NCBI GenBank assembly: GCA_930367215.1
Contig: OV884056.1
Span: 322,492,709-322,556,708, forward strand
Direction of reading: 5' to 3'
Source of the DNA: Pollenia angustigena
Taxonomy: Eukaryota > Arthropoda > Insecta > Diptera > Polleniidae
DNA: 64,000 nucleotides
Position numbers and translations under genes: made by a program. This document shows positions 7,113 to 61,553 of the stretch, piece by piece; positions within the stretch are counted from its first letter, which is position 1, and each line of letters opens with the position of its first letter. The notes under the pieces are model-generated. The model did no database searches. It was not told the origin of the DNA and was given only the letters and a program-made list of their open reading frames with translations.

Positions 7113-9708
7113 TTAAATTAGATTGGTAACAGCAAACCCAACATGATTTGTTGTTTGAGAACCGTCTGTGAAGATAAATTGCCAATTCTCGTTTTTTAAC
7201 GTTGTAAAAACTTCGTCGAAAAGAGATTTAAAAATATGAGGTGTTGTATTAGTTTTATTGAAAATTTGTAAATTTTTCAAAAAAACACTTTCATCCAACT
7301 GCCAAGGAGTAGAATTTTCCACTGGTGGATTATATTTTGCGATATTGTATTTCTTACCCATTTTAAAAATATGTGCTAGCGTTGATGGGTATTTGAGCTC
7401 GTTTTTTCTTTTTTTTAATAAAGAGATATGTTTGTGGAGCAGAGAGGATTTGGTGCAAAATATTTTATGTGTTAATCGTAATTTAAATTTGTTTGCATGA
7501 ATTCGAAGCGGTTCAAATCCACCTTCAGCTAGAAGATTTTTAATAGGCGTTGTTCTAAATGCTCTAAGGCTGGCTCTAATAGCGCCATGGAGTATGGTTT
7601 CAATAGGCTTAAAAATTGATTTAACAGCTTTGCTATAAATAACCAAACCGTAGTCAATTTTACCCAGGATGGTTGATTTAACTAGCCTTAGTAGACTGTT
7701 GGTGTGCATGTGGCTCTTTGCAGATGATAGATACTTGATGATGTTTAATCTATTAGTTAAGTTCTTTTTAAGATATATACAATGATTTTTAAAACTATAT
7801 TTACGATCAATTAGTAAACCTAAAATTTTACAGCTATCAACATTTTAATACTATTATTATTAAAAATCAAATCTATATTATTACAGTTATGTTTTTTACA
7901 AATGTGCAGGTGATTCGTTTTTTCAAACGAAACATCTGCACCTGAGTTTTTGGACCAGTTGTCAATAGCGATTGAAGTCTGTGAAAATGCTTCTTTAATT
8001 TTATCATTTGATTGTTCTTTAGCTATAACATAGAGGTCGTCTGCATAAATACAGTGATCTACACTCTTATTTGCGCTAATAATGCGACTTAAGTCGTCAA
8101 AAGCAATAATAAAAAGTGTTACTGATAGTGGCGAACCCTGTGGGATTCCATTGTACAGCGAGAAAACATTTGAAAAGTTATTGTTTATGCGAACAGAAAA
8201 TTTTCTGTTTATAAGAAAAGATTTAATTATTTTAAACATTTTTGGGCCTATGGACCAATTTGCAAGTTTTTGAAGTACAATGTGTACCCCAACCCTGTCA
8301 AATGCTTTAATAAAGTCAATTGACAAAATTGAGGTATGATTCCTTGTGGAACGATTTTTGCATATAACATGGTCTAAGTACAATAGGGCATCCATTGTGC
8401 TTAGGCCTGCTTGAAAACCAATTTGATTTTTTGATAAATGCTTATGTCTTTTTACAAACCACATAAGGCGTCTTGAAATCATTTTTTCTAAAAGTTTTGT
8501 AATGCAAGGTAGGAGGGATATTGGACGGTATGAATCGATATTGTCAATTGGTTTATTATTTTTGTGAATGGCTACTACTAAAGCAGTTTTAAAATACTGG
8601 GGAATAATTCCTAGATCAAAAATTTTATTAAATAATTTTAGTATTCGAATTTTGAAGGCATTTGGAAGATTTCTTAGCATTGGATAAGATATTTTATCCA
8701 AACCGGGAGTTTTACCTTTTGAAGTGTTAAGACTGTACGACAATTCCTGTAAATTAAAAGGCTGCTCTATCTCTCTGGATTTAACTGAACAGGTTGAAAC
8801 TGTAAGAAATTGCAGAGTTTGTGATTTTTCATTTTGAAAGTTTTGGGAAAAGTTAATATCTTTTGAGTTGTCGGACCAGTATTTTGCAAATGTTTCAGAC
8901 ATGTCAAGTGCATTAGTTATTGTACTTCCATTTAAAGAAATTGTGTTTATCGTGTTTGGGTGGTAGTTACCGGTTATCTTGCGAATGTCTTGCCATAAGA
9001 TATTGGAGGGAGTGGATGGGTTCAGATTCTCCGTGAAGTTATTGAAAGATTTAATTTTTGCCAACTTTTTGGCCCTATTAAAAATAGCATTATTTTTCTT
9101 GTAAAGAACTAGATTTTCCGTACACATATTTCGTCGAAATTGTTTCCATGCCAACTGTTTTTAGTTTCTAATTCGTTGTAATTCAGGTGACCACCATGGA
9201 ACTGTTTTTGTTCTTTTTTTATTTGAGGACTGAGGAATGCTTTCATTAGCAGACAATCTAATTATTTTTCTTATAGAGGCTGCCTCTTTGTTAACATTAT
9301 CAGAAATTTTAATTTCATCACTATAATGTGATATTTTTGTCTGATAGCTATCCCAGTTTGCTCTTCTTGTGTAAAATTTGGTAAGGAAAGGTTGTTCGAT
9401 ATTATTGTTTATAAGAAGTTGTGTTACGATGGGAAAATGATCACTATTATAAAGGTCATTAATGATATTCCATTTGCACTTGGGAGTGATCGATAATGAA
9501 GCTATTGAGAGGTCAATGTGTTGCAGATGTGTTGCAGAACCATCATTTAACCTAGCAAGGTTTGAGTCCATTAAAAACTGTTCTAAAATTGTGCCTTTTT
9601 TGTCACTAAACAAATAATATCAGGATTCGCATCTGATATAAGTAGCTGTAGATTTGTATAATTGTTGCAATATCCTCGAATATTCCACTGAAGAATATTT
9701 AGGACCAT
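7113..9708 (-). pseudogene. I-type LINE ORF2 (endonuclease, reverse transcriptase, partial RNase H), broken
   Basis: Starts at 9708 with MVLNILQWNIRGYC and NPDIICL, the beginning of an apurinic-type endonuclease; SDHFPIVTQLL (9161-9613) is its C-terminal motif. A frameshift and a stop lie between 9613 and 9154. The reverse transcriptase (7820-9154) is the longest open stretch of the window, 444 codons. It has SYRPISLLPCITKLLEKMIS, FIKAFDRVGV, GIPQGSPLSVTLF and the catalytic IYADDLYV. The thumb and the start of RNase H (FIFTDGSQ) follow at 7113-7709 after another frameshift. The long intact RT frame suggests a fairly recent copy. Confidence 0.85.
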
Positions 9709-9769
9709 ATAAGTATGTATGTAATAAAAAATTAGTAAAGTGCTTTTTAATTCACAAGGGCTAAAAGTT

Positions 9770-11138
9770 TTAATCAGAAATTTCGTCGCTGGTTGACATA
9801 AATTCTATTTCTTTCAGTGTAGTTTCACTATCAGAGCTGAGTTCTGATAAACATACTGATTTGATTGGGGAAATAATAAGAGTGTTATTGGTACTCAGAG
9901 AGCTTGAGAATGTAGGTATATAAGAGCGTATAGGAGGTTATTGTTCATTGTTGCTTTTTTTATTAATTATTGGGTTTGTTTGGGATTGTGGTTTTAAAAG
10001 TAAATTGTTTCCAATTTCTTCTTTAGATTTTTCACCGACTTTGTTAAACTCAGATGTTAGGTTTTTTTTTAAATGTCTGAGGTTAAGGAGAGTTTCTCTT
10101 TAATTTGTTGTGATTTTAAAGAATTGCTGTTGGGAGATAATAATTTTGTTTTTCTTGGTTCTGTTGTTGTATTATTGTGTTCTGTTGTTGTTATATTGGT
10201 TTCTATTGTTGTTTGTTGTAGTGTTATTGGAATTAATAATTTGGTTTGAGGATGCAATTGCGGAATAAGAGGTAAAAGAGGTGGTGTTTCTATTTTGGTT
10301 ATTATGAATTGTTATTGCTTCGCGCATCGAACATTTTTTTTGTGTTTTAATTTTTAGTATTTCTTTTTGTTGAACAAATTTTTTACATTTGTTGGAGGAT
10401 GCGGGGTGTTCTTCTGCACAGTATGTTCGTGTACATGGATTGTCGTTATGAGGGGGGAGATTACAGTTTACACATGAAGGTGACCCATTACAGCGTTTTA
10501 TTGTGTGTCCTAGTACTTGACAATTCTTGCACCTCATAGGATTGGGAATGTACTCACGTACTTTCACTTTGTACCATGAGATGTCAAGAGATTGTGGAGG
10601 GTTGTATAGATCAAAGGTTAATAAAATAACTCCAGAAGGGGATTTTTTACCTTAAATTGTTTTTTCGTATTTGTAAACACTTACAACTCCTTGGGATTTT
10701 AATTCTTGTTCAATTTCCGTATTGAAAAAAATGGTGCATAAATAGTTCCTTTTGTGAAATTTAGGTGTTCATGAAATTTACATGTAATGTCGCATATACC
10801 GAACAAATTTTTGGCATCAACAAACTTTTTGCCAGTCAAATAATCTTTAACAAGAAGAAGTAAATTGCCGTCTCTCAATTGAGAAATAGAAATTATTTCC
10901 TTACTTATGAGATGAAGGGATCTGTAAACTGCAAAGCAAGAATACTTATCTAAAGTTTTTTTTTCGTCAACTGCACTAACAACAACATATTTTGTGGCTT
11001 TTGGGTAGGAAGAGAGGGGAAGTCAATTGCAGACTCATTTCTATTTCTTTTTTTTCGTTTGCTTTGGGGACTTCGATCTGCTAGTAAAGCAAACCGGTTA
11101 TCCCCTAGAAGGGGATGCACTGTAATGCAAGTAATCAA
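9770..11138 (-). pseudogene. I-type LINE ORF1 (gag-like, CCHC zinc knuckle), broken
   Basis: Nucleic-acid-binding ORF1 protein of an I-like LINE. Seen: start near 11138 (NRFALLADRSPQSKRKKR), then an RNA-binding-like region (FVDAKNLFGICDITCKFHEH near 10760-10860), then VKVREYIPNPMRCKNCQVLG with CCHC knuckles (10172-10567), followed by an asparagine/threonine-rich tail. The stop TAA is at 9770-9772. In-frame stops at about 10070, 10650 and 10950 disrupt it. Knuckle plus EYIPNPMRCKNCQ is characteristic of I-clade ORF1. Confidence 0.8.
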
Positions 11139-15924: not shown

Positions 15925-16666
15925 CAAGTAAGAAAGTACAGTCGGTCAAGCCCGACTATATGATACCCTACACCACAGTATTTAAAAACACATCATGCTT
16001 ATGTGTCCATATAAATATGGATTTATCTATGTTTATAACCTTCATGAAAATTGGTTTGAACGTTTGTGAGAGGCAGAAATTGCCCCCTACCTCCCCTTGT
16101 GGTCCTATTTTTGAAAAACTGTATATCTAATGTGTCCCTATAGATATGGATCTATCTATGTTTTAAATTTCATTAAAATCGGTTTGAGAGGCAGAAATTG
16201 CCCCTATCTCCCTTCGTGGTCCTATTTTTAAAAAAATGCATACATTCTGTGTCCATATAGATATGGTTCTATCTATGTTTTAAATTTCGTTGAAATGGGT
16301 TTGATAGTTTCTGAGAGGAAGAAATTTCACCCTATCTTCCCTCGTGGTCCTACGATTCGGCCCATTTCCAATAGGCTTGGTCCTTGAGCCAATAAGGACC
16401 TATGACCCAAATTTCATCAAATTATCTCCAAAATTGCGACCTGTACTTTGCGCACAAGGTTACATGGACAGCCAGCCAGCCAGCCAGCCAGCCTGCCAGC
16501 CAGCCTGCCAGCCTGCCAGCCGGACGGACATCGTGAGTTCGACTCAGAAAGTGATTCTAAGACGATCGGTATACTTTAAGGTGGGTCTAGGACCAATATT
16601 TTAAGGCGTTACATACATCAGCACAAATGAATAATACCCTCTCCACTATTGTGGTGTGGGTATAAA
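15925..16666. mobile_element. Repeat P1 (CAAGTAAGAAAGTACAGTCG...)
   Basis: One end reads CAAGTAAGAAAGTACAGTCG then CAAGCCCGACTATATGATAC; the other reads AATACCCTCTCCACTATTGT ending GGTATAAAAA. A CAGC/CTGC tandem run (16469-16522) and GGACGGACATCGTGAGTTCG lie near the second end. Further copies: P2, P3, P4. Non-coding dispersed family; class not known to me. Confidence 0.75.
16469..16522 (+). repeat. (CAGC)n/(CTGC)n tandem run
   Basis: About thirteen units of CAGC with CTGC variants, an internal expansion within P1. Confidence 0.85.
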
Positions 16667-27344: not shown

Positions 27345-27780
27345 GATTTGTTATTAATTATGGTTTTAGGCGACTAAACTGTTTTCCGGTAGTAGGGTTT
27401 ATATGGGCCCTAGGGTAAATTATGGACCGATCATCACGAAATTTCACAGCGTCATTTCTAGTCCTTTAAAACTGTGACGTACCAATTTTTGTTATGCTAG
27501 CATTATTAATTATGGTTTTAGGCGTACTAAACTGTTTTCCGGTAGTAGGGTTTATATGCGGCCTAAGGTAAATTATGGACCGATCGTCACGAAATTTCAC
27601 AGTGTTATTTCTAGTTCTAAAAAACTGTGACGTACCAAATTTTGTTACGCTAGCGTTATTTTTTACGGTTTTAGGCGTACTTAACTGTTTTCCGGGAGTA
27701 TTGTTTATATGGGGCTTAGGGTAAATTATGGACGGATCATCACGAAATTTAACAGCGTGATTTACAGTCAAATAAAACCA
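27345..27780. repeat. Tandem repeat, about 152-bp unit, 2.8 copies
   Basis: Units start at about 27361, 27513 and 27666 with TGGTTTTAGGCG and contain TTTATATG, AAATTATGGACCGATC and ACGAAATTTCACAG. Diverged single copies of the TTTTAGGCG segment occur at about 32600 and 33597, so the unit belongs to the dispersed repeat described at 32481. Confidence 0.8.
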
Positions 27781-36147: not shown

Positions 36148-37317
36148 TTACAGATAAATATTGCTTTTGGTGTCGGTAATGATTTCTCTCGATTTATATC
36201 GAGTTTCCTCAGTGATCGCACTATACGTGTTGTTATAGATGGGATTGCATCAAACGAGTTTCAGGTAAAGTCAGGGGTACCGCAAGGTTCTGTCCTTTCT
36301 CCTACGCTATTTCTTATATTTCTTAATGACCTTCTTGGTCATACTTCAAATCCTATCTACTCTTTTGCAGATGACAGCAACATTTGTCATTCATATTCCT
36401 TCGATCATAGGCCAAGCCTTGTTGAGATTGGGGGCAAAAGGCAAAATATGAATGACACTCTTAATCAGGACCTAGCTGCAATCTCTGAGTGGGGTCAAGC
36501 GAATAGGGTCGAATTTAATGCACGCAAGACCCAATGTTGTATGTTGACCCACAGACGGGCCGTGGGATCAACTATGTCATCTGTATTAATGGGTGGCATT
36601 GATATTAAGGAATCGGATACTCTTGATGTTCTGGGCATGAGAAAACAGTGCGATGTCCGCTGGAATAAACACGTTTTCAAAGTGTCGAAAGAGGCATTCA
36701 AGTGTTTAGGTTTTTTAAAACGGTGCAAGAATCACTTCACTTCCTCCGATCTCCTTACTATCTATACCACCTATATCCGACCGAAGATGGAATACAACTC
36801 CCATATATGGGCAGGGGCTTCAAAGTCTATTTTGAACCTTCTGGACCGTGTACAAAGGAGGGCGGTGAAGCTCATCAATGACAGTAGGGTATCCAACTCT
36901 ATTGACTCATTGGGGCATCGTCGGAATGTGGGTTGTGTGACACTTTTCTATCGATATTACCATGGGAGGTGTTCCACTGAGATAAGTGAACTTATTCCAC
37001 CCGCCCGAGTATTTCTTCGTAATACTCGCTCATCCAGTGGATCACATCCGTTTGTAGTCGATTGTCCTGTGTTTCGCACAACGCATTATAGAGAAAATTC
37101 GTTTTTCAGTCGGACTATCCGTATGTGGAATAAACTTCCCGCAGAGGTCTTTCCCGGTACTTATAATTTATTAAGATTCAAGTCAAATGTCCACAAACAC
37201 TATTCCCTCTTTCCTCCTTCCCAAACCTTATTTTCCTGATCAACACAATGCACTGCATATATAGGGGGCATCCCCTGAGTGTTGGTTTATCGTTAAAAAA
37301 AAAAAAAAAAAAAAAAA
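36148..37317 (+). pseudogene. 5'-truncated LINE, reverse transcriptase C-terminal half, with poly(A) tail
   Basis: Open frame 36148-37239 without any stop, 363 codons, but lacking the endonuclease and RT N-terminus. Seen: FISSFLSDRTIRVVIDG, GVPQGSVLSPTLFLIFLNDL, the catalytic FADDSN, thumb (YTTYIRPKMEYNSHIWAG, DRVQRRAVKLI) and the C-terminal HPFVVDCPVFRTTHYRENSF and FFSRTIRMWNKLP. FF.R....WN.LP is usual in the CR1/Jockey-like groups. A 54-base 3' UTR and about 24 A residues follow (37294-37317). Truncation at the 5' end and a clean tail are classical target-primed insertion; the open frame implies recent arrival. Confidence 0.88.
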
Positions 37318-39992: not shown

Positions 39993-40324
39993 ACTTAGAC
40001 AGAAATTTAAAGAGATATAAGTTATAAAGTGGAAAAAGCCGATTTCGTTTCCCACAAAATTGCTTTAATTCAGTTTAAAGTAAAAAAAATTTTTTTTTAT
40101 TAAAATAAATTTTGTATGGGAAATAAAATCAGGCTTTTTTACTTAATCTCCTCGATTTTAAGTTTAAGCTTGAAAGAAATGATTTATTAAATTTTCCGTT
40201 TTAATTAACTAAAAAAAAACTACTAAAACTACCACAACAGCACTGTAAAAAATCTGCATTTGCTTACAATTATACTCTATGCGAACGTTAACGTGTGACA
40301 TCGTGGGATTGGCTGTATAAGTTT

Positions 40325-41015
40325 CCTAATATTTTTAATTAGGCTAAAGTTCATCAAATTTAATTTTCATTAAATTATTTTTATGAAGAAAGGAATCTTA
40401 CAACATGAAATTAATTAAAATTTATTGATAATTTTTCATTCTTGACTGAAGCAGGGCTCGAACCCAGGCGTTTCTACGGACAGGTCACCCTTACATGTTT
40501 CGATTGCAACCGCTCAATCTCAATCTCTTCAGAGGGGTTTATCGTTTAACACTCGCAGCCATCGACGACTGCTGACGTCAATAGTCAAACATCAATCCTT
40601 AAACCAAATTGTATTTAACCTTTGGTAGATCGAAATTTGCTTTTGAATGATTATCTATTTTTTATTTATTTTACATGTTTTTTCCTGACTTCTGTTTTTT
40701 CGTACTTTTGTCAAGAATTCTTCTTGAAGTCCAAAGTACATTATTTTTGTTTTTGTTTTTCATTTTTTTGTCTTTCTTTTTCTTGTTGAACTTTTCCAGC
40801 ACAACTTGAAGGACAAATGCAAACATAGAGCCCGTGCCTTAACTTTAACAATAATTAGTATTGTGGTTATTTTGTTGAACTATTTATGGTTTTTAGTCCA
40901 AATTTTTTAATATTTTTAATTAGACTAAAGTTCATCAAATTTAATTTTCATTAAATTATTTTTATGAAGAAAGGAATTTTATAACATGAAATTAATTAAA
41001 ATTTATTGATAATTT
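40325..41015 (-). mobile_element. Dimeric hammerhead-bearing element, copy A (retrozyme-like)
   Basis: Minus-strand copy of the element at 48811-49616. A body of about 110 bases occurs twice in the same direction (40908-41014 and 40327-40440, period about 575), separated by a unique part that ends in the hammerhead at 40488-40536 and the GGTTCGAGCCC segment. It keeps the two-body layout of copy B but is clearly diverged from it. No protein is encoded. Confidence 0.75.
40488..40536 (-). ncRNA. Type I hammerhead ribozyme motif, copy A
   Basis: Minus strand: stem I CCCT (40536-40533), core CTGAAGA (40532-40526), stem II GATTG/CAATC (40525-40521, 40506-40502; loop lengthened by a GATTGA duplication), core GAAA (40501-40498), palindromic helix III ACATGT, cleavage triplet GTA, stem I AGGG (40491-40488). 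Against copy B, stem I changed from CCAT/ATGG to CCCT/AGGG, keeping all four pairs. Confidence 0.7.
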
Positions 41016-41340
41016 TTTCCTTAAAGTTTCCTTAAAAACAATATGGCGCGTAATGTGTTAAATGTTATTGTTTACATTTGTTTGCAATAGAGCAAATATG
41101 CACTACTAATCTTGCTCATGTTTTTTTTTAGTGCAAACGAAGTAAATTAGAGCAAATTGCAAATTCATACATTTTGTTTGTATTGTGCCAAATGTGTGTA
41201 TTTTTGCACGCATTTGCACTACCCATCGTGATTTCCCTTACTAATATAACATAAAAAATTTAAGTATTTAGACCGTTAAAGAAAGCATAAATCAACTAAC
41301 ATTTCTGGGGACCAATTGCTGTTTTTTTTTTTTGCATATG
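41016..41340. other. No gene recognised
   Basis: AT-rich DNA with a diverged GCAAATNTGCAC-type motif repeated. Nothing identified. Confidence 0.35.
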
Positions 41341-47412: not shown

Positions 47413-48157
47413 CACAGTGCAAAAAAATTTGGGACATTGCCGCCAGCCTCAACACTTGCAACGCTAAGTGAAACTAGAATGTACTTGAGCTAAAAAATAA
47501 TTTCAGATGTCTTCTTTTCTTAGAATATATTATCCCTCTAACACTCATTTTAAGGAGTAATTTTTGTCCTTTTTTAACTTCCCAACAAAAGTATACTAAA
47601 ACGACACTTTAGAGGTTTAAAAAGTTCCACGAATATTTTCTGCATCAAATTTTACTAGGGGTCTTCTAAGAACAAAACATCGTGCAATGTATGTAAAACG
47701 GGTTTTCGAAATTCCTGGCCTTGAAATTTTTGAATTTCTTGAAAACCCATTTTACATAAAGTGCATGAACTTTTTGTCTTAAAATTTGATGCAAAAAATA
47801 TTCGTGGAACATTTTAACCCTCTAAAGTGCCGTTTTAGAATACTTTTGTTGGGAAATTAAAAAAAGGGCAAAAATTACCCCTTAAAATGAGTTATAGAGA
47901 ATTAATATATACTAAGAAAAGAATCGCAATACGATTTTACTGAAGACATCTGAAATTATTTTTTAGCTCAGAGTTACATTAAGTATATTTTTTTTGACTT
48001 ATACCAAACGCCTATTCAAAAAATTCAAAAACTTTAAAAGCCCATATTTCGGGAACTAAAGCTAACTTTTCAAAACCCTTTGGCAGATTTGCTCTAATAA
48101 TGTTCTAGTTTCATTTTGCGTTGCAAGTATTGATGCTGGTTTTTTTGTTGCACAGTG
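47413..48157. mobile_element. Inverted-repeat element F2
   Basis: CACAGTGCAAAAAAA at the left, inverse TTTGTTGCACAGTG at the right, TAT on both sides. A full-length palindrome whose centre is near 47730. Same family as F1, which has one half flipped. Confidence 0.75.
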
Positions 48158-48159
48158 TA

Positions 48160-48810
48160 TTGATCGTAGGCGAATTCGTTTGAGATTTCTGTAAAGATTT
48201 TCTAATGAGTGAATGAATGAATCTTATGAGACTATTGGAGGAATTCCCTTACAACTTGTAGAATGCTTACACATATAACTGAGCCACCTAAACAAGAGCA
48301 TCAAGCTTCTTTTTCATACAATTTATACGAAACAAACCTTAAGATAAGGAATTCAACAACAATCCTGTTGGAAAATCTTATTTGGCAGATCCTTACGTCG
48401 GCTTGTTTAAATAAAATTGTATTAACAAGTGAATTTTCATGTTTTAAAAACGCCCTTATTTAGGTAGCTCAGTAATTGTTATATGACTCATAAGGAGATC
48501 CGCAAAAGGTTCATTCCAAGTTTAAAAGACAAGCGTGTCAGAAAATGTATAAAAAACGAATAAATAAAAAATTTTGATCATCAGAAGATTCTTTGAGGAG
48601 TTAGACAATCGTCTTACAAACATCTTATGCTATCTGGGCAATATCTTAGACCTACATGTACATATTGTTTATATTTTGCTCCGCGTGTACATTGGTCAAA
48701 CAAATATGTTATAAGTACATTAGATGAAAATCGCTGTTTTTTTAGTGATTTTCATATTAATTTACAGCTTCAATCACTGTTCGTATTGTAAAAACCACAT
48801 GTTAATTATT
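48160..48810. other. No gene recognised
   Basis: AT-rich intronic DNA; a short coding-like stretch at 48263-48463 matches nothing I know. Confidence 0.35.
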
Positions 48811-49616
48811 CGAGTGGTTGCGATCGAAACATGTCATGGTAACCTGCCGGCCAGGGTTCGAGCCCGAGCCACGTCAAGAATGAAAGATTATCAATAACAA
48901 TTTTAATTAATTTTCATGTTGTAAAATTCCTTTCTTCACAAAAATAATTTAATAAAAATTAAATTTCATGAACTTAAGCCTAATTAAAAATATTAAAAAA
49001 TTTGGATTAAAAACCATAAATAGTTCAACAAAATAACCACAATACTAATTATTGTTAAAGCTAAGGCACGAGCTCTATGTGTACATTTGTCCTTCAAGTT
49101 GTGCTGAAAAAGGTCAACAGAAAAGAGAAAGACAAAGTGAAAAAACAAAAAATGTACTTGGACTTCAAGAAAAATTCTTGACGAAAGTACGAAAAAACAG
49201 AAGTAAAGGAAAAAACATGTAAAATCAATTAAAATGGATAATCATTCAGGAAAGCAAATTTCGATCTACCAAATGTTAAAATACAATTTGGTTTAAGGAT
49301 TGATGTTTGACTAGTGACGTCAGCAGTCGTCGATGGCTGCGAGTGTAAGACGGCAAATCCATCTGAGGAGATCGAGTGGTTGCGATCGAAACATGTCATG
49401 GTAACCTGCCGGCCAGGGTTCGAGCCCGAGCCACGTCAAGAATGAAAGATTATCAATAACAATTTTAATTAATTTTCATGTTGTAAAATTCCTTTCTTCA
49501 CAAAAATAATTTAATAAAAATTAAATTTCATGAACTTAAGCCTAATTAAAAATATTAAAAAATTTGGATTAAAAACCATAAATAGTTCAACAAAATAACC
49601 ACAATACTAATTATTC
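48811..49616 (+). mobile_element. Dimeric hammerhead-bearing element, copy B (retrozyme-like)
   Basis: A direct repeat of about 245 bases (48811-49050 and 49373-49616; virtually identical on reading) with period 562 bp. Each repeat begins inside or at a hammerhead ribozyme and continues with a GGTTCGAGCCC segment and an AT-rich body. Between them is a unique part of about 320 bases. The first repeat starts abruptly at CGAGTGG, inside stem II; the second has the full ribozyme at 49351-49411. No protein frame, no TG...CA ends, no primer-binding site. This layout, tandem units each with a type I hammerhead, is that of retrozymes and of Penelope-element direct repeats. It abuts a Penelope-like inverted-repeat element at 49617. 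Confidence 0.8.
49351..49411 (+). ncRNA. Type I hammerhead self-cleaving ribozyme
   Basis: All parts are visible. Outer stem I CGGC/GCCG (49351-49354, 49408-49411); internal loop AAAT/TAACCT; inner stem I CCAT/ATGG (49359-49362, 49398-49401); core CTGAGGA (49363-49369); stem II GATCG/CGATC (49370-49374, 49383-49387) with loop AGTGGTTG; core GAAA (49388-49391); helix III ACATGT (49391-49396), self-complementary and too short to close alone; cleavage triplet GTC, so the scissile bond follows 49397. A palindromic helix III implies action as a dimer, as in known Penelope and satellite hammerheads. The same bond in the truncated upstream copy would be after 48835, giving a 562-nt unit. Confidence 0.8.
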
Positions 49617-49860
49617 TGCTTAATATTAAATTAAAATGCTTAAGCTCGAGGTCAGTTGTATGTAAAATTTTTTTTTATTTGTGTAGTTTTTGATGCTGAA
49701 ACGTGAAGAGCTATTACTCCTTTATTGTGGTTAATGTAAATTTTAATTAAACATTCCCTGATGATGATATTCAAAGAATATCGAAATATCGGAAACAAAT
49801 AAAGAAAAATTTTACATACAACTGACCTCGAGCTTAAGCATTTTAATTTAATATTGAATT
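49617..49860 (+). mobile_element. Penelope-like inverted-repeat element with hammerhead motif
   Basis: Inverted arms of about 50 bases containing AATGCTTAAGCTCGAGGTCA and GTTGTATGTAAAATTTTT at 49620-49672 and 49803-49858. The hammerhead-like motif (49754-49794) sits just before the right arm. A fragment of the arm is at about 12650. No coding part present. Confidence 0.65.
49754..49794 (+). ncRNA. Hammerhead-like motif (Penelope type)
   Basis: Stem I TTCC/GGAA (49754-49757, 49791-49794), core CTGATGA (49758-49764), one extra T, stem II GATATTC/GAATATC seven pairs with loop AAA, core GAAA (49783-49786), helix III ATAT, triplet ATC with cleavage after 49790. Everything fits except the unpaired T after the first core block. 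Confidence 0.6.
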
Positions 49861-60756: not shown

Positions 60757-61420
60757 TTGCACAGAAGAGAAAGAAAATTAAGAAATCTAAACCACATATA
60801 TCTGCGTAGCTCCGATTCCTTTAAGGAAACAGCAACACATAAACCAAATAATTGCAAAAACATACAACCGAAAACGGCATTAACACACATTCGAACTAAG
60901 AACACAAATAAAAAAAAAAAAAGAAAACAAAAAATAAAAACTTTCTACAGACATGGCGTGGGCCACAAAACCCAAAGGACCCCAGGTCCGCATATATCAG
61001 CTAAACATAGAGGGCATTAGCAAAGCTAAGTCCGACTATCTGTCACGATTTCTGATAGATGAAAAAGTGGACGTAGTCCTAATCCAGGAAACTCATGCTT
61101 CCTCACTAGAAATTGTGAATAGAAGGGTTAATATATCCGGTTTTAAGCTTCTAGCTGCAATTTACCACCCCAGATATGACATTGCAACTTATATCCAGAA
61201 CGATATCCAAGGCGCTGAAGTCCTTACCTGCGACGAAACTGACGACATCTCCCTTATTACAGTAAATGTTCAAGGCTTACATATAATGAATGTTTATAAA
61301 CCCCCCGCTACAAAGTGGCCAGCTCACGTACTGCCTTCTTACCCCCATCCCGAGGTCTATAGCACGTGGAGGTACGCAACCGATGATGAACATTTCGAAT
61401 CTCTTCTTTCATATAATTTA
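60757..61420 (+). pseudogene. LINE 5' fragment, RTE-like endonuclease domain
   Basis: After a lysine/threonine-rich leader, the frame from 60953 encodes RIYQLNIEGISKAKSDYLSR, DVVLIQETHASS, then VNVQGLHIMNVYKPPATKWP. These match the first half of the apurinic-type endonuclease of LINE ORF2 (QLN.EGI, LIQETH, .NVY.PP). The GDFNSHH block is missing: VY is followed directly by TWRYATDDEHFESL, which normally comes after it. Homology stops near 61420 and the reverse transcriptase is absent. Having a 5' end without a 3' end is opposite to normal LINE truncation. Confidence 0.75.
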
Positions 61421-61553
61421 ATTTTTAAATATTTTGTTGACGTGTGTAATTTCTAAGTGTAGGAAGCGGAATGAACAAGTTGCTTATTCTCCATCTATTT
61501 TTTTTGTATACGTATATCGAGCTCTAACCGCGAAAATAGCGTAAGCGTAAGAA

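What the first reader, a model, noticed from the sequence alone, without database searches (positions are those of the whole stretch)
48811..49616. Dimeric element with a complete type I hammerhead ribozyme: a retrozyme-like retroelement in a fly intron
Seen: 562-bp period direct repeat, and at 49351-49411 all hammerhead parts (CTGAGGA, stem II GATCG/CGATC, GAAA, palindromic ACATGT, GTC, two-part stem I CGGC-CCAT/ATGG-GCCG). Known: retrozymes and Penelope-like elements carry type I hammerheads with minimal, often dimer-forming helix III in tandem units that self-cleave and circularise. Inferred: transcripts would be cut to 562-nt units and circularised. No protein is encoded, so the family must borrow its replication machinery. 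The near-identical repeats suggest recent insertion.
Basis: partly seen in the sequence, partly recalled or inferred. Interest (0 to 1): 0.9.

Follow-up and report, generated by a model that had tools for sequence, protein, structure and literature searches.

The report
Self-cutting RNA jumping element in fly
A large fly genome holds more than twenty thousand copies of the core of a small protein-less jumping element that carries a self-cutting RNA, and many copies sit in two-sided arrays that look as if a circular RNA had been copied from both edges of a chromosome cut at once.

Summary
In detail: a 562-bp unit present 1.43 times (244/244 identical) with a complete type I hammerhead at 49351-49411. 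Rfam stays below threshold (15.3 of 34 bits), but stem covariation supports the ribozyme. The window holds a second, diverged copy (minus strand, about 40328-41017), and the 1.37-Gb genome has 23,579 exact matches to a 34-nt hammerhead-core pattern. The element fits the known metazoan non-LTR retrozymes. Its copies show something I did not find in the papers I could search: 17 of 25 loci fetched without regard to arrangement (22 of 31 in all) are head-to-head arrays, minus arm then plus arm. In all 22, exactly one outer end lies 211-226 nt after the cleavage point and the other elsewhere; in 14 of 22 the outer edges share >=10 nt, as target-site duplications would. Best reading: transcripts are cut and circularised, and the circle is copied, often for several laps, from both nicked target strands. 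Penelope-like elements, present here with their own minimal hammerheads, are the likeliest enzyme donor; a LINE is not excluded. No RNA was examined.

The parts
48803..48810 (+). Left copy of TAATTATT, possible 8-bp target-site duplication
   Evidence: the same 8 letters belong to the unit's 3' end (49046-49053), so duplication and template microhomology cannot be told apart here (net length 0)
48811..49053 (+). 5'-truncated partial unit, identical to 49373-49615; starts inside hammerhead stem II
48855..48864 (+). B-box-like GGTTCGAGCC, first copy
49054..49615 (+). One full 562-bp unit (no long ORF; 32% GC)
49351..49411 (+). Complete type I hammerhead; scissile C at 49397; stem I CGGC/GCCG + CCAT/ATGG, stem II GATCG/CGATC, helix III ACATGT
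   Evidence: covariation
49417..49426 (+). B-box-like GGTTCGAGCC, second copy
49608..49615 (+). TAATTATT at the 3' end of the insertion, 211-218 nt after the cleavage point; one outer end of each of the 22 inverted loci lies at 211-226
40328..41017 (-). Second, older copy of the family: 581-bp unit, about 1.19 units; internal repeats differ at 3 of 110 aligned sites
40478..40544 (-). Its hammerhead, with compensatory changes in stems I and II, GUA in place of GUC, and 6 extra nt after stem II begins
40455..40464 (-). Its B-box-like GGTTCGAGCC
41024..41032 (-). AGGAAACTT, 5' copy of a probable 9-bp target-site duplication of the second element (6-7 extra bases lie between it and the element)
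   Evidence: read; same string found
40319..40327 (-). AGGAAACTT, 3' copy of that duplication
   Evidence: read; same string found

Best explanation
It is a copy of an abundant, recently active, non-autonomous metazoan retrozyme. Multimeric copies are transcribed, the type I hammerhead cuts the RNA to ~560-580-nt units, and a host ligase closes them into circles (inferred from known retrozymes; no RNA data here). A borrowed reverse transcriptase uses the circle as template at a staggered target break. One target strand primes near a preferred RNA site (CUAAUUAUUG, 211-226 nt after the cleavage point); the other strand often primes at a second, variable site. Each primer can be extended for more than one lap, and the two cDNAs are joined in the middle. 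This leaves target duplication, minus arm, plus arm, target duplication, with the RNA 3' ends facing out. Copies with one arm, such as the one in the window, would come from priming on one side only. The insertion geometry and the presence of Penelope-like elements with their own minimal hammerheads make a Penelope-type enzyme the likeliest donor (inferred).
For: Copies: 23,579 exact hammerhead-core matches, 0 for the reversed-pattern control. Stem II matched C-G 15,352 against mixed C/A 74 and T/G 84. Covariation over 16 distinct hammerheads: 11 double-change cells against 4.3 in shuffles, covariation score 0.231 against 0.107, 0 of 500 shuffles as high for either. Geometry: within 2.5 kb, 11 minus-plus and 0 plus-minus neighbours among 100 listed places. 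22 of 31 fetched loci are head-to-head (17 of 25 without the six); 22 of 22 have exactly one outer end at 211-226. Edge strings >=10 nt in 15 of 29 rows (14 of the 22 inverted) against 1.6% of 812 mismatched pairs. Empty site for a further insertion, in L064: taking out 489 bp (element plus one 13-bp repeat) leaves flanks that match the paralogous copy L073 at 97%. Laps: 27 of 44 arms exceed one unit, the longest 7,494 nt. Unit identity 0.997 within an arm, 0.990 across arms, 0.947 between loci. Penelope-like proteins present; 8 of 11 such loci carry a minimal hammerhead.
Against: No RNA evidence: cleavage, circles and expression are untested. The monomer's predicted minimum-energy fold is not the hammerhead (-17.3 against -12.0 kcal/mol without helix III or tertiary contacts), and helix III is weak. 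In one search two of five measures (pairs with double change 2 against 2.0; further pair types 5 against 5.3) do not exceed the shuffles. 14 of 29 rows showed no edge string >=10 nt, and after taking off the overlap with the arms only 9 of 29 keep >=5 nt. The 211-226 class was defined after seeing the ends. Nine of 31 loci are not head-to-head. One search's listing holds two plus-minus neighbours within 2.5 kb (perhaps two insertions side by side). Central junctions are tight (-2 to +3 nt) in only 14 of 22. No sequence shared between retrozyme and Penelope ends was found. For L035 the best other locus (L034) is as similar as its own units, and for L057 the lowest within-arm value is below the best other locus. 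5' ends are not uniform (KS p 0.02). A linear multimer as template is not strictly excluded.
Confidence: 0.75

Rival explanations
1. Same circle and twin priming, but the reverse transcriptase and endonuclease come from a LINE (for instance a Jockey-type element) rather than a Penelope-like element.
For: Jockey-like LINEs are in the window. Edge strings reach 18 nt and are A/T-rich. Twin priming is best known from LINE-1 (recalled). PMC4918200 (passages) reports 15-bp LINE-like duplications around Nematostella repeats.
Against: Inverted short arm plus direct tandem part, with one end longer than the other, is the Penelope arrangement described in PMC3846280 (passages). I saw no obvious poly(A) tail in the flanks printed, by eye only; some ends lie in A-rich unit sequence.
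Confidence: 0.33
2. The inverted arm arises by self-priming or snap-back of a cDNA, as the authors of PMC3846280 propose for Penelope elements, rather than by priming from the second target strand.
For: PMC3846280 (passages) reads palindromes at Penelope's inverted junctions as self-priming. In 3 of 22 loci here (L043, L048, L058) the two central ends lie within 30 nt of each other on the unit, and L043 overlaps by 18 nt.
Against: In 19 of 22 the central ends are more than 30 nt apart on the unit, and the two outer ends differ in all 22, which a fold-back copy would not give.
Confidence: 0.1
3. The template is an uncut linear multimeric transcript of an existing array, not a circle.
For: An array of 13 near-identical units exists (L039) and could be transcribed as a multimer.
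Against: None of the 44 outer ends lies closer than 89 nt to the cleavage point, 27 of 44 arms exceed one unit, and units of both arms are similar in the three loci where this could be compared. I did not search for transduced flanking DNA.
Confidence: 0.15
4. Satellite DNA spread by DNA-level amplification and rearrangement, with the hammerhead as a relic.
For: Homogeneous tandem arrays such as L039.
Against: Shared edge strings around whole arrays, an empty site in a paralogous element, 45 separate clusters in the first 6.1 Mb of one contig, and compensatory changes in the ribozyme stems.
Confidence: 0.04
5. A small LTR retrotransposon (TRIM) of the Helenus kind with a tRNA-like promoter in its LTR, the 244-bp repeat being the LTR.
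For: Direct repeat plus B-box-like motif.
Against: The repeated part has different limits in the loci read, so there is no fixed LTR; inverted arms and a 13-bp duplication against 4 bp for animal Helenus (PMC10886601, passages).
Confidence: 0.02

Closest known systems
Metazoan non-LTR retrozymes (Cervera and de la Pena 2020, PMC7229834; parts 1-2 of the results, the discussion and passages read)
   Same: Type I hammerhead in every unit, tandem units, no ORF, low GC, highly self-paired predicted circle, target duplications longer than 4 bp, weak helix III as in the axolotl motif; insects are named among hosts
   Different: Unit 560-582 nt rather than ~170-400; head-to-head arrays with one preferred outer end; B-box-like motif. 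The word 'inverted' does not occur in that paper's main text
Penelope-like elements with minimal hammerheads
   Same: Inverted repeat head to head with a direct tandem part, 9-10-bp target duplications, optional tail on one end (PMC3846280, passages); hammerheads in Penelope repeats (PMC7761336, passages; this genome)
   Different: No reverse transcriptase or endonuclease gene here; hammerhead has full stems I and II; no sequence similarity of the ends found
Schistosome Smalpha SINE-like repeats
   Same: Type I hammerhead in a short repeat (PMC8490949, passages) linked to tRNA sequence (PMC4918200, passages)
   Different: There a full tRNA; here only a B-box-like block, no tRNA fold found; insertion structure not described in the passages I read
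pDo500 satellite DNA of Dolichopoda cave crickets
   Same: Insect tandem repeat with a hammerhead-like structure (PMC2808323, passages)
   Different: Treated there as satellite DNA; [quoted passage not shown]
Plant LTR retrozymes
   Same: Ribozyme-made circles as retrotransposition intermediates (PMC4918200, PMC7229834)
   Different: Type III hammerhead, LTRs, PBS, PPT, 4-bp target duplications

Membership tests
Metazoan non-LTR retrozyme | Type I hammerhead in the repeat unit | tested here: met
   Motif scan, covariation; Rfam only sub-threshold
Metazoan non-LTR retrozyme | Units in tandem, many copies per genome | tested here: met
   23,579 core matches; 41 of 44 same-strand spacings within 2.5 kb are 560-582 bp
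Metazoan non-LTR retrozyme | No protein coded | tested here: met
   Longest ATG frame around the circle 34 aa (+) and 56 aa (-)
Metazoan non-LTR retrozyme | No fixed LTRs | tested here: met
   Repeat limits differ between loci
Metazoan non-LTR retrozyme | No PBS or PPT | not tested
   No search for a primer-binding site or polypurine tract was made
Metazoan non-LTR retrozyme | GC below 50%, target duplications longer than 4 bp | tested here: met
   32% GC; 13-bp duplication with empty site, edge strings in 15 of 29 rows
Metazoan non-LTR retrozyme | Highly self-paired monomer RNA | tested here: met
   Circular fold z -4.8 against 40 shuffles, one unit tested
Metazoan non-LTR retrozyme | Unit of about 170-400 nt | tested here: inconclusive
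   560-582 nt is outside the quoted range, which is descriptive; the same paper's discussion speaks of circles from 150 to over 1000 nt
Metazoan non-LTR retrozyme | Self-cleavage and circular RNA in tissue | not testable with these tools
   No RNA data
Rfam RF00163 Hammerhead_1 | Gathering score 34 bits | tested here: not met
   15.3 bits; no hammerhead match for the second copy up to E 10
Penelope-like element | ORF with reverse transcriptase and GIY-YIG endonuclease | tested here: not met
   No such ORF; it may work with such an element but is not one
tRNA-derived SINE | tRNA-related head | tested here: not met
   ARAGORN 0 in the window; no Rfam tRNA listed up to E 10. A B-box-like block alone is present
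TRIM / Helenus | Two LTRs with fixed ends | tested here: not met

The most novel reading that the evidence does not exclude
Retrozymes enter animal chromosomes by bidirectional rolling-circle target-primed reverse transcription: a ribozyme-made RNA circle is copied for several laps from both nicked strands, the first start being fixed on the RNA and the second opportunistic, with the enzyme lent by Penelope-like elements. In this family the ribozyme's stem-loop II may also serve as the A box of an internal RNA polymerase III promoter whose B box lies just downstream.
Probability: 0.3. Interest if true: 0.85.

Novelty: new variant of a known kind. Interest (0 to 1): 0.68.

Why it matters
A 2020 review (PMC7761336, section 9 read) says that metazoan retrozymes show no conserved motif from which their helper retrotransposon could be deduced, and seem to have no promoter. 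This family offers a handle on both: more than twenty thousand ribozyme cores with readable insertion junctions, one preferred start site on the RNA, a conserved B-box-like block, and a helper candidate in the same genome. It would make the way in which an RNA circle is turned back into chromosomal DNA directly testable.

Tried and rejected
Rfam at gathering and at lax thresholds: hammerhead sub-threshold for the first copy, not listed for the second. tRNA search: none. DNA search of the whole element in the genome returned nothing although thousands of copies exist; the tool says that it skips very common words, and pattern searches replaced it. Exact-pattern scans of viral and prokaryotic collections: 0; the tool may leave out records of this genome. 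Homology of the left flank to the unit (22 aligned columns) was not significant (P 0.20). Loop I-loop II complementarity (GGUU/AACC) is not significant on its own (P 0.11 and 0.15). Scarcity of T-runs as a sign of RNA polymerase III was not significant for the first copy (P 0.20) and weak for the second (P 0.012). In 13 of 14 units (one per locus) the only TTTT runs are two sites within q66-85, in L049 one site at q70; these would stop a polymerase III transcript early and speak against it for full-length units. LTR/TRIM and satellite readings were rejected (see rivals). An attempt to see the 5' end of a Penelope copy (L074) did not show it; that copy seems 5'-truncated. The count of the T-A form of stem II was asked for three times and never answered.

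Rows left out: four of 31 loci (L033, L034, L045, L053) were dropped from the edge-string table because their limits were unclear; 29 rows = 27 loci plus the two window copies. L034 also holds, near its right edge, part of a second array with a minus-plus junction that I did not count. 31 of the 45 clusters in the listing were fetched: the first 20 and the last 5 in order, then six of the rest, four of them because the listing showed them inverted. L064's insertion is head-to-head too but is not among the 22.

Full report
What is there. The window (31% GC) contains a 562-bp unit present 1.43 times at 48811-49615; the two copies of the shared 244 bp are identical. The unit holds a type I hammerhead at 49351-49411: CTGAGGA, stem II GATCG/CGATC with an 8-nt loop, GAAA, helix III reduced to one A-U pair around the palindrome CATG, the scissile C at 49397, and a stem I in two parts. 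Two hammerheads were found in the 64 kb by a both-strand motif scan; 200 first-order Markov windows gave 0.01 per window, none at the stricter setting. The second is in a diverged copy on the minus strand at about 40328-41017 (620 of 710 aligned columns identical; 615 of 665 ungapped columns), whose unit is 581 bp and whose internal repeats differ at 3 of 110 aligned sites. Between the two copies, 3 of 13 ribozyme pairs have changed on both sides and 12 of 13 still pair; placing 8 substitutions at random among the paired sites gives that many compensations with probability 0.003. On two sequences the tool's own shuffle control is weak (66 of 500).

Only one complete hammerhead is present in each window insertion; the truncated 5' copy of the first lacks the CUGAGGA strand. 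The predicted minimum-energy fold of the isolated motif is not the hammerhead, and the weak helix III resembles the axolotl motif that acts as a dimer (PMC7229834, results part 2 read). The whole unit as a circle folds much better than shuffled sequence (z -4.8, 40 shuffles).

Family size and covariation. The window lies in a 1.37-Gb genome of 31 contigs. The pattern CTGANGAGATNGAGNGGTTGCNATCGAAACATGT has 23,579 exact matches and 0 for the reversed control. At ~565 bp each this would be about 1% of the genome, a lower bound for the family, since partial and diverged copies are not counted. Stem II occurs as the matched pair C-G 15,352 times and as mixed C/A 74 times or T/G 84 times. The remaining 8,069 hold the T-A form, seen often in the listing, and any other letters; the T-A count was not obtained. 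Subfamily history accounts for part of this pattern, but L037 combines the inner stem I of one subfamily with the stem II pair of the other. Over 16 distinct hammerheads, 11 cells change on both sides of a pair against 4.3 in shuffles, and 0 of 500 shuffles reach this; slid structures give 0 to 2. Two of the five measures (number of pairs with double change, number of pair types) do not exceed the shuffles.

Insertion structure. I fetched 31 of the 45 clusters in the listed first 6.1 Mb. With unit position 1 set just after the cleavage site, 22 of 31 loci (17 of the 25 fetched without regard to arrangement) consist of a minus-strand arm followed by a plus-strand arm, so that the RNA 3' ends face outwards. 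Among the 100 listed places the neighbours within 2.5 kb are 11 minus-plus and 0 plus-minus; a second listing, of C-G forms only, adds six and two beyond 6.1 Mb (my reading). In all 22 inverted loci exactly one outer end lies at 211-226 and the other elsewhere, 20 of them at 119-198, one at 89 and one at 405; the 211-226 end is on the right in 14 and on the left in 8. That class was defined after seeing the ends. None of the 44 outer ends is closer than 89 nt to the cleavage point. The two ends of the central junction lie more than 30 nt apart on the unit in 19 of 22 loci, which argues against a snap-back hairpin there; the join is tight (-2 to +3 nt) in 14 of 22. Common strings at the two outer edges are >=10 nt in 15 of 29 rows (14 of the 22 inverted), against 1.6% of 812 mismatched pairs; L035, L040, L041, L043, L051 and L054 are clear examples. 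Part of many of these strings overlaps the element's own ends; net of that, 9 of 29 keep >=5 nt. One further insertion (L064) sits in the 3' region of a Penelope-like element, and its joined flanks match paralogous copies without it at 97% (L073) and 95% (L069), with a 13-bp repeat TTGTTTTTTATAA. 27 of 44 arms exceed one unit, the longest being 7,494 nt. Units are 0.997 identical within an arm (66 pairs), 0.990 across arms of one locus (7 pairs, three loci; the compared units of L040 are identical) and 0.947 between loci (522 pairs); L035 ties with its neighbour L034, and L057's lowest within-arm value lies below its best other locus.

How it most likely works. These facts fit a single insertion event in which one RNA template is copied from both sides of a staggered break, often for more than one lap, followed by joining in the middle. 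A circular template explains laps that start and end inside the unit, away from the cut site, and the similarity of both arms; the hammerhead supplies the cut, and a host ligase the closure, as proposed and shown in vitro for other metazoan retrozymes (PMC7229834). That one end is fixed suggests that the first-strand start is chosen by the enzyme or by RNA structure, and that the second start is opportunistic. What is shown here is DNA anatomy only; cleavage, circles and the order of events are inferred.

Helper. A GIY-YIG search gave 19 matches above cut-off (150 of 493 candidates scored), and 12 loci were fetched. The strongest is probably the cellular SLX1 gene (my inference). The other 11 are related to one another by sequence; the two frames that I put to Pfam carry GIY-YIG, one shows a YVDD reverse-transcriptase motif by eye, and 8 of the 11 loci carry a minimal hammerhead of the Penelope kind, on which I call them Penelope-like. 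PMC3846280 (passages) describes Penelope insertions as an inverted, shorter repeat next to direct repeats, head to head, with 9-10-bp duplications and an optional 31-bp tail at one end; its authors favour self-priming. The retrozyme geometry is the same in kind. No shared end sequence was found, and LINEs of the Jockey type are also present, so the helper remains open.

Promoter. The only three GGTTCGANNC matches in the window are in the two copies (expected 0.33). Across 14 loci the 12-nt block GGGTTCGAGCCC is 99% conserved while the 12 columns on either side are at 73% and 75%; this is mainly a contrast between two subfamilies, and 9% of all 12-column windows are fully conserved. The box consensus sequences are recalled. 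Stem-loop II reads like an A box with two departures from the recalled consensus; no tRNA fold was detected, and the TTTT sites just downstream would end a polymerase III transcript early. I regard an internal promoter as possible, not shown.

Relation to what is known. Type I hammerheads in animal tandem repeats, including insects, are known as non-LTR retrozymes (PMC7229834). Linked tRNA sequence is known in schistosomes (PMC4918200, passages). In the papers I could search (most subscription journals are not held, and I read only sections or passages of eight papers) I found no description of head-to-head retrozyme arrays or of twin priming on an RNA circle; PMC7229834 does not contain the word 'inverted' in its main text, and PMC7761336 only in a reference. 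The element is therefore a member of a known kind whose insertion structure is, as far as I could check, new.

Noticed in passing
49622-49855: Inverted repeat of 61-nt arms, 98% complementary, starting 6 bases beyond the retrozyme's end; looks like a MITE (Rfam plant miRNA models match it below threshold).
   Followed up: no
7113-10567 (-), 36148-37236 (+), 60938-61453 (+): LINE fragments: reverse transcriptase and endonuclease domains; best named relatives of the first in Bactrocera and Haematobia.
   Followed up: partly
L064:734-1213: Head-to-head retrozyme inserted in the 3' region of a Penelope-like element, with a 13-bp duplication and the empty site in paralogues.
   Followed up: yes
L063, L064, L066-L070, L073: Penelope-like elements of this fly carry minimal hammerheads (CCCCTGAAGA...GACGAAACGTTGGG and variants), about 210-320 nt after the reading frame where nothing is inserted; L070 shows a second frame downstream, as in a partial tandem.
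   Followed up: partly
L034:4597-5090 and L035:3105-4036: The centre of one inverted array seems to be repeated about 16 kb away, perhaps a segmental duplication.
   Followed up: no
G000:C1:12683342-12687031: Seven hammerhead cores in the order minus x3, plus x2, minus x2, with a plus-minus pair only 417 bp apart: perhaps nested or neighbouring insertions.
   Followed up: no
27351-27763 and 16067-16304: Tandem repeats of 153 bp (2.7 copies) and 117 bp (2 copies).
   Followed up: no
47512-47923: Inverted repeat with arms of 79 and 107 nt at 82-85%.
   Followed up: no
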